NCBI GenBank assembly: GCA_028281265.1
Contig: JANQKE010000203.1
Coordinates: forward strand, 1-43,572
Source: Alphaproteobacteria bacterium
GTDB taxonomy: Bacteria; Pseudomonadota; Alphaproteobacteria; DSM-16000; Inquilinaceae
DNA: 43,572 bases
Direction of reading: 5' to 3'
A program made the translations under genes and the position numbers. The stretch's first letter is position 1. Each line of letters opens with the position of its first letter. This document shows, in pieces, positions 18,519 to 23,670 of this stretch. The notes below the pieces were generated by a model that ran no database searches, was not told the DNA's origin, and saw only the letters and a list, made by a program, of their open reading frames with translations.

Positions 18519-18764
18519 TCACTCCTGCCAGAGACGCCGCTGACCCGAATAGGGCTGGGAGAAGCGCGTCCGAGCCGCCGGATCCGCCAGGATTCGGGTG
18601 GCGATGCCGTATCTGACATGGCGTGGCGAAGCACCGAGCGTAAAGAGCCTGGGATCGACACCGGCGCTCTGCGGCGGCCGGCGCGTCAGCGCTCCCGCGG
18701 CGGCCTCGGGGTTCTGCGCCGAGGCGGTTATGTCGGTCTGCGACCTTTCCCGTTCCCTAGTCAT
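18519..18764 (-). CDS. small hypothetical protein (81 aa) of accessory island
   Basis: Open frame of 81 residues. ATG at 18762-18764 is preceded by AGGAAAGG with 7 bases spacing, a strong ribosome site. The protein is Arg-rich and polar, with no membrane segment; the C-terminal part includes [21 protein letters not shown] do not recognise it. It lies between the composite repeat R2 and rlmN. It shares no clear similarity with the peptides upstream, so whether it belongs to the peptide cassette is unknown. Could also be a remnant. Confidence 0.45.
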
Positions 18765-18819: not shown

Positions 18820-18922
18820 GATCAACCTGCGTTCAGAGGGACTCATCTGAACGCAGATAAGGTGATCGACTTCAAAGAGTTAGAGCATCTTATCTGCGTC
18901 CGTTCGGACACAGGATACTCTA
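18820..18922 (+). repeat. composite palindromic repeat, copy R2
   Basis: Hairpin II has arms 18827-18837 and 18846-18856 (CTGCGTTCAGA/TCTGAACGCAG). The linker GTGATCGACTTCAAAGAGTT leads into hairpin I (CTGCGTCCG, then a degenerate right arm CGGACACAGGATACTCTA). Orientation is the same as R3. Its last three bases are, on the minus strand, the TAG stop of the 63-aa peptide gene. Confidence 0.88.
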
Positions 18923-19111
18923 TCTCGTCCAGCCCTCGGCACGACGTGCGATCGCCTGCCGGACGATCGGGTTGCGCGCCGCGATCTCGTTGATCACGAC
19001 CCTGAACCCTACGGGGTTGCTGAGAAGCGGTTCGCTCCCGATGGCACCGGGCGTAGCGACTTCCGCGGTCGATGAGGCGGACACGCGTCCCCTCTCCCCT
19101 TGCTCGTGCAT
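18920..19111 (-). CDS. small hypothetical peptide (63 aa), possible third precursor peptide
   Basis: 63 residues. ATG at 19109-19111 has AGGAG 8 bases upstream. The sequence is Ser/Ala/Glu-rich in the first half and ends in a basic amphipathic helix candidate (INEIAARNPIVRQAIARRAE). It lies 80 bases downstream of the 52-aa peptide gene on the same strand, so it is probably on the same transcript as the PatG-like protease. It does not share the conserved N-terminal half of the other two peptides. Its TAG stop is supplied by the edge of repeat R2, so the original C-terminus may have been altered if the repeat inserted later. Function unknown. Confidence 0.55.
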   Translation of the reverse strand: MHEQGERGRVSASSTAEVATPGAIGSEPLLSNPVGFRVVINEIAARNPIVRQAIARRAEGWTR

Positions 19112-19191
19112 GATCCGTCTCCTGTCTCGGTGGATGGCCGACCTTCAACCGTGGCGGTAGGCGGCGACCGGTCGATGCCGGACATGGCCGG

Positions 19192-19350
19192 TCAGCTATT
19201 GATGGCGCCCCTGACCGCGCCGACGATGGCCGGTAGGGCCAAGCTGGCCAGGACGCCCAGGAACGCCGGTCCGACCCCACCCGCAGCGCCGATCTGGGCC
19301 GTCTTGGCCGGCCCTCGCTCGACGCCGGGGGACTGAATTGGCTTGCGCAT
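19192..19350 (-). CDS. putative RiPP/bacteriocin-like precursor peptide A (52 aa)
   Basis: 52 residues beginning MRKPIQ, with SD AGGAAG about 7 bases before ATG (19348-19350). The first 40 residues match peptide B (19431-19607) at 31 positions, including an unbroken GVERGPAKTAQI and PAFLG. The C-terminal part (LASLALPAIVGAVRGAI) is hydrophobic and helix-prone with a single Arg. There is no signal peptide, no double-glycine site shared with peptide B, and no Cys. The shared front and divergent hydrophobic tail resemble a leader/core layout. Position after a PatG-type protease gene suggests that the protease cleaves it (inference). Too short for default gene callers and easily missed. Confidence 0.75.
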   Translation of the reverse strand: MRKPIQSPGVERGPAKTAQIGAAGGVGPAFLGVLASLALPAIVGAVRGAINS

Positions 19351-19382
19351 GGTTCACTTCCTGATCGTTCGTGCGCAGAGCA

Positions 19383-19415
19383 GGCGGTGCCGCGACTGGG
19401 TATGGCGGCACCGCC
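19383..19415. terminator. 11-bp perfect hairpin between peptide genes
   Basis: GGCGGTGCCGC (19383-19393) and GCGGCACCGCC (19405-19415) are perfect inverted arms around an 11-base loop. It lies in the 80-base gap between peptides B and A. No U-tract follows, so it is more likely a processing, stabilising or partial attenuation structure than a simple terminator. Confidence 0.55.
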
Positions 19416-19430
19416 CATCGGCGCCGGTGG

Positions 19431-19607
19431 TTACGAATCGCCGCCGAGCGCACCTTGCAGGGCGCCGAGAGCGGCGTTCTTGAGGACCGGCAGGGCGCTG
19501 CTCAGCAGCCCGCCCAGGAACGCCGGGTTGACACTGCCGGCCGCCGCGATCTGGGCGGTCTTGGCCGGGCCGCGCTCCACACCTTCACACTGCATTGGCT
19601 TACGCAT
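19431..19607 (-). CDS. putative RiPP/bacteriocin-like precursor peptide B (58 aa)
   Basis: 58 residues beginning MRKPMQ, with a strong AAGGAG 7 bases before ATG (19605-19607). Paralogue of peptide A: both share GVERGPAKTAQI, AAG and PAFLG, then differ. Within the 12 invariant residues the two genes differ at several synonymous positions (for example GTC/GTG, CGA/CGC, ACG/ACC), so the protein sequence is conserved by selection. The tail LLSSALPVLKNAALGALQGA is amphipathic and helix-prone, ending GGDS. One Cys at position 7. It is 130 bases after the protease stop, separated by hairpins. Probably the first processed substrate gene of the cassette (inference). Confidence 0.78.
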   Translation of the reverse strand: MRKPMQCEGVERGPAKTAQIAAAGSVNPAFLGGLLSSALPVLKNAALGALQGALGGDS

Positions 19608-19685
19608 GACGAGTCTCCTTGTGAGTCGAGAGGGTAAGAAGGGCGCGCCTGTCCGGATGCGCCGGAAGGTCGCGCCCGCTCAATG

Positions 19686-19705
19686 CCGGCACCGACCGGT
19701 GCCGG
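19686..19705. terminator. hairpin between protease and peptide B genes
   Basis: CCGGCACCG (19686-19694) and CGGTGCCGG (19697-19705) form a 9-bp stem. A second small stem (CGCGGC/GCCGCG) lies at 19711-19726, nearer the protease stop. No T-run. These stems may adjust peptide mRNA levels relative to the protease. Confidence 0.5.
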
Positions 19706-19737
19706 TTCCTCGCGGCAGCAGCCGCGCGGATTCCTGC

Positions 19738-22032
19738 CTAGAAGATCATCCAGTCGCGCAGCGGTCCGACCGTCACGGGCACCACGTCGCTGACATCGAC
19801 GGTGTACTGGAACACCTTGCGCGCGGTCGTCAGGGTCGCGGCCGGATCGAAGAACGTCCAGGTCACATCCCAGCAATCCGAATCCGGCCGGCAGATCGTG
19901 CTTCGGTCCACCGACACGGTATCGAGGAACATCGGGTTGGGCTTACTATGCGCCACGTCCCGGAAGATCTTCTTCGTGTTGAAAGCGTTGAAGGCCGAGT
20001 AGTTCATGGCCCGGTCCTGCGGCGACACGCCGACATTGCGGAACTGATTGTAGATCCTCTCCAGGAACGCCCGGAAGTTCTCCGGCGGGTCTTCGCCCGC
20101 GATGTCGTCGATGTTCCAGCCGAACATGCCGCGCCAGATCGGTACGAGTTGCGGTATGACCGTCCCGTTCAGCAGCCGGACCTCACCGTTCACGAGACCG
20201 GCCTGAGAGACCCGCTCGACTGACGGTTCCTTCTTCTCACCCGTCGCCCTCGATCTATCCCCCATCGTCGTGTGATCGCGGGCATTGCCGAAGGGTTCGG
20301 CGATTTCCTGCTGCCACAGCAACGACAGCAGTTCCAAGTATGTTGGAAATCCAAAGGCACTCTGCGGCTGAATGGCATAGATCGGAGTGGTGTCGATGTT
20401 GATCGTCCAAATAATCGCGTTGGCATTTGGCAGATTCACATCGTCACCTTGTTCCTTGTACAGAAGAAATCTGATCATGATCTCCGGATTCCAGGGCGCA
20501 GCGTAGTCTCCACTCGGATCATAGGTGCCGGGGGTCACCCGCCTCCGCCACTCGGCGATGGCCTGGACGAAGTAGTCGAACCGCGCTTCGCTCTCGAAGT
20601 CGTAGAACAGCCGGCCGATCACGAAGACGGGCGTCTCATGGATCGCCTGCGACGGCCGGACCCCCGCACAGCCGCAAGACTGGCTCGGCGCGACGGCGGC
20701 GACCGGAGCGGTGGCCGAACCGCCCGGAACGGCCTGCGGGCCGACCGACTGCAGGGTCGACGGTAGCGGCACCGCCATCTGCGGGGTACCGCCCTGGAAC
20801 GCCTGCGGCGGCAGGCTGGGCGCTGCCGCAGGCATCGGTGCCGCGGCCTCCATCGGCGCCGGGGCCGTGGCCGGCACCACCGCGGCGCTCGCGTCGGACG
20901 GTGTCACCTGGGACTGATCGGGTGCCGTCGGCACGCGGGTCGAGGGACCCACCCCGGACAACGGCATGCCGTCAGGGCCGAGAAGGGTGGACGGGGTGGG
21001 GCCGGATGCCTGGTTGTTCGCGGACATGGAACCTGCTTCTCCTGTGGGTTGGGTGTCGGAACGGGGAGAGTCGAACGACGCATTGCCTGCCTCGCTCGGG
21101 GTCGCGGCGATGATCGGCGGCGTCGCGGAGGGGCGCGGGTCGGGCCCGCTGCTTGGCGCGGGGAGCCGTAAGGCCGTCATCGCTGCCTGGACGTCGAGGA
21201 CGCCGGGAGGGCCCCGGCCGTCCTCCGGCGCTCGTTGCGGATCGAGGGGGGCCGCGGTGTCGAGGAGAAGCTGGCGGATGGCCTGGGCGTCCATGTCGTG
21301 GCCGCGTCGGTATCGCTGGCTGAGCAGGAGCGCGGCGACCGCGGTGACGATGGGGGTCGCGAAACTGGTGCCGGATCGTCTGTCCACGCTTCCGCCGGCG
21401 CCGGCGCCAGGGACGGCCTCCCCGGGCGCCAGCAGGCCGTTGTCGCGGTAGGCATCGCCGTAATTGCTGAAGGGCAGGGGCCGGCCGTCGCGATCACAGG
21501 CACCGACGGCCAGGACCGTGGGCAGGGCGGCCGGCACGTGGAGGCACCGGCATCCGTCGTTCCCGGCTGCCGCGACGATCAACGCGTTGCCCCGGGCGCA
21601 TCTGTCGACGGCCGCCTCCAGGAAGCGGTCGCCCTGCCCGGTCGGCGTGAACTGGCCGCCGCTGATGTTGATCAGGACGGCGCCGCTGTCGAGGGCAAGG
21701 TGGATCGCCCGCGCAAGGGTCGTCTGGGCACAACTGATCAGGTTGCCGTCGGGATCTTCCCGGTACACGGGAATGCACAGGACGGCGCAGTTTGGCGCAA
21801 TGCCGGCGACCGACGTTCCGGGCTGGCCGGCGACGACGCTGGCGATATGGGTGCCGTGCGTCGACCGGGAGGGATCGATGTGGCTCGACAGGACGTCGAG
21901 GCGCGCGTCCCGAAACGCCGGGTGACTCCGGTCGACCGGCCCGTCGATGATCGCGACCCGTACCTCCGGCGTTCCGCCTCCGGACATCTCGATGAGGTCT
22001 TCGAGGCCCGGCATGTCGACAACGGTGGTCAT
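19738..22032 (-). CDS. PatG-type subtilisin-like maturation protease (S8 domain plus PatG C-terminal domain)
   Basis: 764 residues from ATG 22030-22032, with GGAAAGAGGG upstream; the frame opens further but without support. Residues 20-290 are a subtilase with an intact triad: Asp30 (VAIIDGPVD), His59 (STHGTHIASV), Ser223 (SGTSFATPIV), oxyanion Asn158 (AAGND). Residues 290-450 are a Pro/Ala/Ser-rich linker ending in SCGCAG (Cys453, Cys455). Residues 468-764 match the PatG C-terminal domain of cyanobactin proteases: VIGRLFYDFESEARFDYF, CRPDSDCWDVTWTFFDP (714-730) and TVDVSDVVPVTVGPLRDW near the end. In cyanobactin pathways PatG cleaves and macrocyclises precursor peptides. Here no PatA, PatD, oxidase or transporter is encoded nearby. 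No signal peptide, so cytoplasmic. The peptide genes immediately follow. Confidence 0.85.
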   Translation of the reverse strand: MTTVVDMPGLEDLIEMSGGGTPEVRVAIIDGPVDRSHPAFRDARLDVLSSHIDPSRSTHGTHIASVVAGQPGTSVAGIAPNCAVLCIPVYREDPDGNLISCAQTTLARAIHLALDSGAVLINISGGQFTPTGQGDRFLEAAVDRCARGNALIVAAAGNDGCRCLHVPAALPTVLAVGACDRDGRPLPFSNYGDAYRDNGLLAPGEAVPGAGAGGSVDRRSGTSFATPIVTAVAALLLSQRYRRGHDMDAQAIRQLLLDTAAPLDPQRAPEDGRGPPGVLDVQAAMTALRLPAPSSGPDPRPSATPPIIAATPSEAGNASFDSPRSDTQPTGEAGSMSANNQASGPTPSTLLGPDGMPLSGVGPSTRVPTAPDQSQVTPSDASAAVVPATAPAPMEAAAPMPAAAPSLPPQAFQGGTPQMAVPLPSTLQSVGPQAVPGGSATAPVAAVAPSQSCGCAGVRPSQAIHETPVFVIGRLFYDFESEARFDYFVQAIAEWRRRVTPGTYDPSGDYAAPWNPEIMIRFLLYKEQGDDVNLPNANAIIWTINIDTTPIYAIQPQSAFGFPTYLELLSLLWQQEIAEPFGNARDHTTMGDRSRATGEKKEPSVERVSQAGLVNGEVRLLNGTVIPQLVPIWRGMFGWNIDDIAGEDPPENFRAFLERIYNQFRNVGVSPQDRAMNYSAFNAFNTKKIFRDVAHSKPNPMFLDTVSVDRSTICRPDSDCWDVTWTFFDPAATLTTARKVFQYTVDVSDVVPVTVGPLRDWMIF

Positions 22033-22199
22033 GAGAGGCCCTCTTTCCCGGGCTTGTGGCACCGGCCGCGCCGGCATTCCGGCTGCGCCGGCATCCCAGG
22101 ACGCCCGCCCACCGGGCTCCCATGCTTCACGCACCGGGGATCGACTTCGCGTTCCAGGGACATCGATCGGCCCATCCGACAGGGACAGCATTCGGGATC

Positions 22200-22436
22200 G
22201 TGGGGCATGTCTCGGGCCTCGCCAGAAGATGAGTGCCGTTTATTCGCCTATGAACACATCATGATACACTCCAATCTACAAAGCAATTTCAGGATATTGC
22301 ATGCGGAGGAACTGGTTTTATTTATATTGCACGCTGCGCAAGCATACTCGTATGGCACTTTATCGTCCTAATATTATTAGGAATTCAAGCGATGAGATCG
22401 CTCGGCCATGCAATGCTGTGACGAAACCTGGGAAGC
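22200..22436. other. AT-rich upstream region of protease cassette
   Basis: GC falls far below the surrounding sequence, especially 22240-22400. It must hold the promoter of the protease-peptide transcript (minus strand), but I could not assign clear -35/-10 boxes. A 54-codon plus-strand frame (22207-22371) crosses it but has no supporting ribosome site. The base composition suggests horizontal acquisition. Confidence 0.5.
22366..22382. promoter_or_regulatory. 17-bp palindrome, candidate operator
   Basis: TCCTAATA-T-TATTAGGA: 8-base perfect arms around one T, inside the AT-rich region upstream of the protease gene. The dyad fits an HTH dimer site. The HTH regulator gene at 23055 is a candidate ligand (inference). 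Confidence 0.4.
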
Positions 22437-22500
22437 CGATAAGTTGATCGACTTCAAAGAGTGAAAGCATCCTGCGTCCGTTCGGACCCAGGTTGCTCTA
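22437..22500 (+). repeat. composite palindromic repeat, copy R3 (partial)
   Basis: Linker TTGATCGACTTCAAAGAGT followed by hairpin I core CTGCGTCCGTTCGGAC and a degenerate right arm CCAGGTTGCTCTA. Hairpin II is reduced to a remnant (GATAA). The degenerate right arm resembles that of R2 and not the intact arms of R1 or R5. Confidence 0.8.
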
Positions 22501-23054: not shown

Positions 23055-23468
23055 CTATTCGGAGGAGATTGCCTCGATCGCCCTTGCAAAATGAACGATA
23101 AAGTCCCTTGGTGTTTCGCGGAGCTTCTCAAGCAGCCTTTTCTCTTTTGGACTAATGGAGAAGGAAAGATGATGATCTATAGTGCCCCTCTCCAACAGCA
23201 GCCAATCCGCGGAGATGTCCAGGATCCGACAGAGCTTGACCGCGTTGTCCGTCGTTATCGGCGCGCCTTTTCTCCAGCGGCTTATCGTGCTCTCGTTGAC
23301 TCCGACCTCGATCGCAAGAACGTACATCTTGTTGATCTTTCGAACACGGAGCGCCTCTTCGAGACGACGACCCCGCCCGCGGTCGTATTGCGTCTCGGAT
23401 CGATCACCCATTCCCAGAACGTGAGTCGGAACATCTCGCATGGATAGTGTTCTGGAGTACGGTAGCAT
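23055..23468 (-). CDS. HTH (Xre/Cro-CI-like) transcriptional regulator
   Basis: Up to 137 residues. The HTH runs from about RRLEEALRVRKI through LAIEVGVNESTISRWRKG, followed by AVKLCRILDISADWLLLERG, the classic Xre/CI third- and fourth-helix pattern. The C-terminal 45 residues are a charged helical tail. Start choice is open: ATG at 23468, 23441 or 23411 (118 residues) all lack a good Shine-Dalgarno. GC content is well below that of housekeeping neighbours, suggesting transfer. Located about 1 kb upstream of the protease cassette and probably autoregulated or controlling it (inference). Confidence 0.82.
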   Translation of the reverse strand: MLPYSRTLSMRDVPTHVLGMGDRSETQYDRGRGRRLEEALRVRKINKMYVLAIEVGVNESTISRWRKGAPITTDNAVKLCRILDISADWLLLERGTIDHHLSFSISPKEKRLLEKLRETPRDFIVHFARAIEAISSE

Positions 23469-23505
23469 GCTGCGAGCATCACCGGGAGGGGATACCGCTT
23501 ACCAG

Positions 23506-23670
23506 ATGACGAATTTATCTTCAGATATTCTAATTAATGAAGCAACCATGGGAGATTGCGCGGCAAGCAACTCGGTTCGGGTTGTCCTGCACGGGATGCA
23601 ATCAACAGAAAAACGTATGTTCTATATGATGCAATCAACAGAAGAACGTATGTTCTATATGACGACATAG
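23506..23670 (+). CDS. small ORF with duplicated 11-codon unit
   Basis: 54 codons from ATG 23506, divergent from the HTH gene. The frame also opens at 23440, which would overlap that gene. The C-terminal half consists of two consecutive 11-residue units, MQSTEKRMFYM and MQSTEERMFYM, then TT. The 33-base unit keeps the reading frame. AT-rich; no clear ribosome site. It may be a real small protein or merely a tandem duplication in non-coding DNA. Confidence 0.3.
   Translation: MTNLSSDILINEATMGDCAASNSVRVVLHGMQSTEKRMFYMMQSTEERMFYMTT
23596..23661 (+). repeat. 33-bp tandem direct repeat, two units
   Basis: 23596-23628 and 23629-23661 differ at one base (A/G at the sixteenth position). Both begin ATGCAATCAACAGAA and end ATGTTCTATATG. 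Confidence 0.9.

What the first reader, a model, noticed from the sequence alone, without database searches (positions are those of the whole stretch)
18920..22032. PatG-type protease with tandem small peptide genes: candidate minimal RiPP or bacteriocin system
A subtilase with intact triad and a PatG C-terminal domain is followed on the same strand by three short genes with good ribosome sites, two of them paralogous. Classical cyanobactin loci also need PatA, a cyclodehydratase and often an oxidase; none is here. A lone PatG-like enzyme plus peptides with a conserved front and hydrophobic tail would be a reduced or different peptide-maturation system outside cyanobacteria.
Basis: partly seen in the sequence, partly recalled or inferred. 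Interest (0 to 1): 0.88.

Follow-up and report, generated by a model that had tools for sequence, protein, structure and literature searches.

The report
Lone cyanobactin-type protease with precursor peptides
A bacterium carries a stripped-down relative of the cyanobacterial cyanobactin pathway, just a leader-cutting protease and small precursor genes, and the same pairing turns up beside related lone proteases in other Alphaproteobacteria, in Streptomyces and in cyanobacteria, which points to an overlooked peptide-maturation system.

Summary
On the minus strand, 22032-19738 encodes a 764-aa subtilase with intact triad and PatG_D/PatG_C domains, above the TIGR03895 cut-off. All, with an upstream HTH gene, are conserved in order in a Kiloniellales MAG. 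'PatG-type' needs correcting: the catalytic domain is PatA-type (leader-cleaving), without the macrocyclase insertion. pep1 and pep2 carry two signatures of the cyanobactin precursor PatE: the N-terminal PxQxx[PG]VxR motif and a PatA-like cut site (GxVxPA; PatA: G[LV]E[AP]S), but no heterocyclase site and no AYDG. A leader profile built without this lineage ranks them top of the window's ORFs. Such peptides lie beside 20 of 20 lone PatA-type proteases examined (Alphaproteobacteria, Streptomyces, cyanobacterial plasmids); no other maturation gene is shared, and the genome has no YcaO. Most likely the protease removes the leader and frees 23-29-residue hydrophobic peptides, perhaps bacteriocin-like (untested). 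I found no description of this in the held papers. It is a new variant of the cyanobactin kind that makes the unexplained leader motif and DUF testable.

The parts
19738..22032 (-). PatA/PatG-family subtilase, 764 aa: PatA-type catalytic domain (residues ~16-289), low-complexity linker, cyanobactin DUF (PatG_D 469-576, PatG_C 651-761)
19431..19607 (-). pep1: precursor-like peptide, 58 aa, MRKPMQCEGVERGPAKTAQIAAAGSVNPA / FLGGLLSSALPVLKNAALGALQGALGGDS
   Evidence: held-out leader HMM E=3e-4; dN/dS 0.19
19192..19350 (-). pep2: precursor-like peptide, 52 aa, MRKPIQSPGVERGPAKTAQIGAAGGVGPA / FLGVLASLALPAIVGAVRGAINS
   Evidence: held-out leader HMM E=6e-7, best of 509 entries; dN/dS 0.23
19572..19598 (-). 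pep1 PxQxxGVxR leader motif (PMQCEGVER), counterpart of PQQGQPVIR in PatE
19315..19341 (-). pep2 PxQxxGVxR leader motif (PIQSPGVER)
19521..19538 (-). pep1 PatA-like cleavage site GSVNPA (cut predicted after A29)
   Evidence: alignments; PatA consensus G(L/V)E(A/P)S from PMC10885120; the cut itself is inferred
19264..19278 (-). pep2 PatA-like cleavage site GVGPA (cut predicted after A29)
   Evidence: the cut itself is inferred
18920..19111 (-). pep3: conserved 63-aa gene (LSNPVGF..EIAxRNPIVRQAxxRRAEG), no leader motif, role unknown
   Evidence: 55% identity to L003, dN/dS 0.44
18519..18764 (-). pep4: conserved 81-aa gene (RRPPQxxGVDP..[20 protein letters not shown]), not in the finding, role unknown
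   Evidence: dN/dS 0.35; SD-like aggaaagg
23055..23468 (-). HTH (Cro/CI-like) gene upstream of the protease, conserved beside it in L003; possible regulator
   Evidence: (dN/dS 0.15)

Best explanation
This is a minimal cyanobactin-related maturation cassette. A PatA-type protease with the cyanobactin DUF recognises tandem small precursors (pep1 and pep2, possibly pep3 and pep4) through the N-terminal PxQxx[P/G]VxR motif. It cuts at the conserved GxVxPA/S site, probably after A29. That frees unmodified, hydrophobic peptides (FLGGLLSSALPVLKNAALGALQGALGGDS and FLGVLASLALPAIVGAVRGAINS). There is no heterocyclisation and no PatG-style macrocyclisation. The likely role of the products is bacteriocin-like or membrane-active. 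Shown: gene arrangement, domain membership, selection on all genes, leader and cut-site motifs, recurrence beside lone PatA-type proteases in several bacterial lineages. Inferred: that this protease cuts these peptides, the exact site, that the motif is the docking signal, absence of modification, and the biological role. My estimate is about 0.8 for leader cleavage of these peptides by this protease and about 0.45 for a bacteriocin-like role.
For: TIGR03895 510 bits, PatG_D and PatG_C. Catalytic domain closest to the PatA/LynA structures, 53% identical to PatA against 40% to PatG, triad intact. PatE leader confirmed from PDB 4v1t/2kya: ILPQQGQPVIR..GLEAS; PatA cuts after G(L/V)E(A/P)S (PMC10885120). 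A leader HMM built without window or L003 ranks pep2 first (6e-7) and pep1 third (3e-4) of 509 entries, with L003 pep1 second. Strict motif P.Q..[PGA][VI].R: 39 of 194 ORFs within 1.5 kb downstream of lone proteases, 0.1 expected in shuffles; elsewhere 8 of 2328, 7 of which are further family members; 18 of 20 loci strict, 20 of 20 with one-residue variants. In seven loci the first peptide ORF overlaps the protease stop codon, suggesting translational coupling. No other maturation gene recurs across lineages. Own genome: no YcaO, no C39 peptidase, a single PatG_C. Purifying selection on pep1-4.
Against: No cleavage data. The predicted site ends in A, not the usual S, and in pep1 has an extra residue (GSVNPA). 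PatG-DUF did not bind PatE' by NMR (PMC4259220), so leader recognition by the DUF is unproven (PatA-DUF was not tested there). No dedicated exporter or immunity gene was found near. Core amphipathicity is only marginal against shuffles (p 0.07-0.10). pep3 and pep4 lack the leader motif and remain unexplained.
Confidence: 0.72

Rival explanations
1. The protease also joins the ends of the freed cores, giving head-to-tail cyclic hydrophobic peptides like circular bacteriocins.
For: The cores are short, hydrophobic and Gly-rich, as circular bacteriocins are (own knowledge). PatA and PatG are homologous and both carry the DUF (PMC4259220).
Against: The insertion of the PatG macrocyclase is absent (query 46-57 spans PatG 55-107). 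No AYDG-like C-terminal signal; C-termini vary between loci.
Confidence: 0.1
2. The freed or intact peptides are signals or act on the producing cell, read by the neighbouring HTH gene, rather than acting as antimicrobials.
For: A conserved HTH gene lies upstream in window and L003. A BTAD regulator neighbours the Streptomyces proteases. No exporter or immunity gene seen.
Against: Several divergent copies per locus and strongly variable cores (Cys-rich or hydrophobic) fit a product family better than a single signal.
Confidence: 0.22
3. A partial cyanobactin pathway: other modifying enzymes act in trans from elsewhere in the genome.
For: The assembly is 99.4% complete but in 232 contigs, so a missed gene is possible.
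Against: No YcaO and no second PatG_C in the genome. Lone loci in several lineages all lack such enzymes nearby. Peptides lack the heterocyclase site and AYDG.
Confidence: 0.1
4. The small ORFs are unrelated to the protease; adjacency is accidental.
For: There is no direct biochemical link.
Against: 20 of 20 loci, shuffle expectation near zero, start-stop overlap, held-out profile hit.
Confidence: 0.03

Closest known systems
PatA, N-terminal leader protease of the patellamide cyanobactin pathway (TIGR03895; PDB 3zxx/3zxy)
   Same: Subtilase with the same triad, best structural match by sequence, C-terminal cyanobactin DUF; substrate leaders share PxQxx[PG]VxR and a related cut site.
   Different: Stands alone: no PatG macrocyclase, PatD, PatF, PatB or PatC; long Pro/Ala-rich linker; substrates lack the heterocyclase site and AYDG; cut site ends in A.
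PatE and other cyanobactin precursors
   Same: N-terminal motif and RSII-type site; several precursors per locus occur in both.
   Different: One long 23-29-residue hydrophobic core at the C-terminus instead of short cassettes flanked by RSII and RSIII.
Azoline-free cyanobactins such as sphaerocyclamide (PMC6162287)
   Same: No heterocyclase or oxidase.
   Different: They keep the SphG macrocyclase, SphF prenyltransferase, SphB and SphC; here none.
'Cyanobactin peptidase' of Roseomonas oryzae (PMC8776678)
   Same: Cyanobactin-type peptidase in an alphaproteobacterium; the authors guess a cyanobactin-like peptide.
   Different: No precursors, motif or gene arrangement were described in the passage read.
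PatB/AcyB/McaB family (TIGR04220), unknown function
   Same: The L004 PatB begins MRLPKLAPPVKR, close to the leader motif; last genes in Streptomyces cassettes begin LPVQGAAIERG or similar.
   Different: The window has no PatB hit; any link is speculative.

Membership tests
PatA/PatG-family cyanobactin maturation protease (TIGR03895) | Score above the curated cut-off | tested here: met
   510.5 bits against 421.05
PatA/PatG-family cyanobactin maturation protease (TIGR03895) | Intact subtilase triad and cyanobactin DUF | tested here: met
   D30/H59/S223; PatG_D and PatG_C
PatG-type macrocyclase | Capping insertion in the subtilase domain | tested here: not met
   PatG 55-107 has no counterpart; query 46-57 spans it
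Cyanobactin pathway | PatE-type leader motif LPxQxxPVxR | tested here: met
   KPMQCEGVER and KPIQSPGVER; held-out HMM. Caveat: K for L, G for P, and PatE itself scores only weakly with that HMM (0.024)
Cyanobactin pathway | RSII cut site G(L/V)E(A/P)S | tested here: inconclusive
   GSVNPA and GVGPA align with GVxPS of relatives, but A for S
Cyanobactin pathway | RSIII (AYDG-like) after the core, and a G-protease | tested here: not met
   absent in the peptides; one PatG_C gene in the genome, and it is PatA-type
Cyanobactin pathway | PatB and PatC family genes | tested here: not met
   pep4 has no NCBIfam hit at E<=1, pep1-3 no TIGR04220 or TIGR04447 hit at E<=10
Cyanobactin pathway | YcaO heterocyclase (in many, not all, pathways) | tested here: not met
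   no PF02624 match in the genome
Cyanobactin pathway | Macrocyclic or prenylated short product | not testable with these tools
   needs mass spectrometry
Bacteriocin | Growth inhibition of other bacteria by the mature peptide | not testable with these tools
   cores are hydrophobic, hydrophobic moment only marginal

The most novel reading that the evidence does not exclude
A distinct class of ribosomal peptides spread over Alphaproteobacteria, Streptomyces and cyanobacteria, matured by a PatA-type protease alone. The (L)PxQxxPVxR motif would be the docking signal for this protease family, kept in PatE (and perhaps PatB) as inheritance from this simpler system, from which cyanobactin pathways grew by adding PatG, PatD and PatF.
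Probability: 0.4. Interest if true: 0.85.

Novelty: new variant of a known kind. Interest (0 to 1): 0.72.

Why it matters
The DUF of PatA and PatG and the small proteins PatB and PatC have no assigned role in the papers read (PMC4259220, PMC4663559), and I know of none for the conserved first residues of PatE. Here a natural system keeps only the protease with its DUF, the leader motif and the cut site. That isolates which parts belong together and gives a two-component test system. It also gives a simple genome-mining rule (lone PatG_C protease, then scan downstream for PxQxx[PGA][VI]xR) for a set of unexplored peptides, annotated at best as hypothetical proteins, in Streptomyces and Alphaproteobacteria.

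Tried and rejected
Flanking direct repeats (18865 and 22447) as mobile-element ends: rejected, the repeat has about 95 copies in the genome. Chance motif: rejected by shuffles and off-target ORFs. YcaO, C39 peptidase or a second PatG elsewhere in the genome: none. A conserved maturation or export neighbour: none; recurring neighbours in one family only mark a chromosomal site. Structure prediction of the protease from a two-sequence alignment failed (pLDDT 28) and is not used. pep4 on plasmids or convincingly in order relatives: none. An IMG/VR search gave one generic subtilase match. pep4 as a PatB homologue: no profile support. The one genome-contig scan gave only L003, because a single protein was used as query.
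Full report
What is there. [quoted passage not shown] PatG_C 651-761). It passes the curated cut-off of TIGR03895, the PatA/PatG family. Gaps are 130, 80, 80 and 155 bases, and each gene has a Shine-Dalgarno-like site. Upstream, 23468-23055 encodes a small HTH protein.

They are genes. A protease in a Kiloniellales MAG (L003; 70% identical over 759 aligned residues) has the same HTH gene upstream and the same four small genes downstream, in order. Between the two loci dN/dS is 0.29 for the protease, 0.19, 0.23, 0.44 and 0.35 for pep1-4, and 0.15 for the HTH gene, whose synonymous sites are near saturation. All show purifying selection. Neighbouring genes recognised by Pfam are housekeeping genes (PurA, a HisZ-like protein, RlmN, PreA/PreT-like proteins).

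Which protease type. PatA and PatG both end in the same DUF (PMC4259220), so the Pfam name 'PatG' does not decide. The catalytic domain matches the N-terminal cyanobactin proteases over its whole length (258-270 bits) and PatG about half as well (150 bits), and it lacks PatG's insertion of roughly 40 residues. It is 53% identical to PatA and 40% to PatG. It is therefore PatA-type: expected to remove leaders, not to macrocyclise. Window and L003 form their own well-supported pair in the tree; deeper order is unresolved.

What the peptides are. The patellamide precursor leader (PDB 4v1t, 2kya) begins with ILPQQGQPVIR near its N-terminus and ends GLEAS, after which PatA cuts (consensus G(L/V)E(A/P)S; PMC10885120). 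pep1 and pep2 read KPMQCEGVER..GSVNPA/FLGG and KPIQSPGVER..GVGPA/FLGV. The heterocyclase element LAELSEEAL and the C-terminal AYDG are missing. I then collected lone PatA-type proteases elsewhere: plasmids of Streptomyces and cyanobacteria and ten genomes of one other alphaproteobacterial family (10 of 248 sampled). In the wider samples the domain is rare: 1 of 385 class genomes and 2 of 398 phylum genomes. In every one of 20 loci a short ORF just downstream carries the motif: 18 by a strict pattern, and L005 and L038 by variants. The strict pattern occurs in 39 of 194 downstream ORFs, with 0.1 expected after shuffling. Elsewhere it occurs in 8 of 2328, of which 7 are further members or longer readings of members and one is chance. 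A leader profile built without window or L003 puts window pep2 first and pep1 third of 509 entries (E 6e-7 and 3e-4), with the two L003 peptides second and fourth. In seven loci the first peptide ORF overlaps the protease stop codon. Cores vary: hydrophobic here and in many Streptomyces peptides (for example GVEA then NFLPLLGALGSLLF), Cys-rich in the other alphaproteobacterial family and in cyanobacteria.

How it probably works. The protease is recruited to the leader motif, cuts at GxVxPA, and frees FLGGLLSSALPVLKNAALGALQGALGGDS and FLGVLASLALPAIVGAVRGAINS. Recruitment, cleavage, site and product form are inferred. No YcaO or C39 peptidase and no second PatG_C was found in the assembled genome, and no other maturation gene recurs across lineages, so the simplest product is a linear unmodified peptide. 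The cores are hydrophobic, with charge 0 or +1 and only marginal amphipathicity, so a bacteriocin-like role is plausible but not shown. A signalling role is the main rival. Export and immunity are unexplained. pep3 and pep4 are conserved but lack the leader motif.

Against. PatG-DUF did not bind PatE' by NMR (PMC4259220), so the idea that the DUF reads the leader motif rests on genomic co-occurrence alone; PatA-DUF was not tested there. The window's cut site diverges from the usual one (A for S). The 20 loci are not all independent: several alphaproteobacterial ones are close relatives, and the Streptomyces ones form one clade.

Compared with what is known. It is a member of TIGR03895 and works like the leader-removal step of a cyanobactin pathway. 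It is not a cyanobactin pathway, because macrocyclase, RSIII, PatB/PatC and YcaO were tested and not met. A 'cyanobactin peptidase' has been noticed in Roseomonas oryzae (PMC8776678), without precursors. Literature searches of the held papers found no description of this protease-peptide arrangement or of the shared leader motif outside cyanobactin pathways. Most subscription papers and all preprints were not covered, so prior knowledge cannot be excluded.

Verdict. A real, conserved, minimal cyanobactin-related system, new as a variant, with a motif-level explanation that can be tested with two purified parts.

Noticed in passing
window 18865-18915 and 22447-22500: A repeat with a palindromic core (ATCGACTTCAAAGAGTNNNAGCAT then TGCGTCCGTTCGGAC) flanks the protease-pep3 part in the same orientation; about 95 copies in the genome within 2 mismatches against 0 for the control, so a REP-like intergenic element.
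   Followed up: partly
window 22191-22450: AT-rich stretch (46% GC against 69% for the window) just upstream of the protease, possibly its promoter region.
   Followed up: no
window 23440-23670: Short near-tandem repeat, read in one frame as MQSTE(K/E)RMFYM, next to the start of the HTH gene.
   Followed up: no
L008 6962-8338: The Nostoc plasmid protease has lost part of its subtilase domain (including the catalytic Ser region) but keeps the DUF and a downstream Cys-rich leader peptide; possibly a peptide-binding remnant.
   Followed up: no
L004 9080-11479: The Gloeothece cyanobactin locus has a protein with apparent methyltransferase domains fused to the cyanobactin DUF, without a protease domain.
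   Followed up: no
L004 11577-11792; L007 11239-11493; L014 9841-10161: PatB of a cyanobactin locus and the last genes of Streptomyces cassettes begin with a leader-like motif (LPKLAPPVKR, LPVQGAAIER, LPVQGAVER); PatB might descend from a precursor.
   Followed up: partly
L012, L032-L036, L038-L039: In one alphaproteobacterial family the cassette sits beside the same long opposite-strand gene (it looks like a TypA/BipA-type GTPase, not verified), a recurrent chromosomal site.
   Followed up: no
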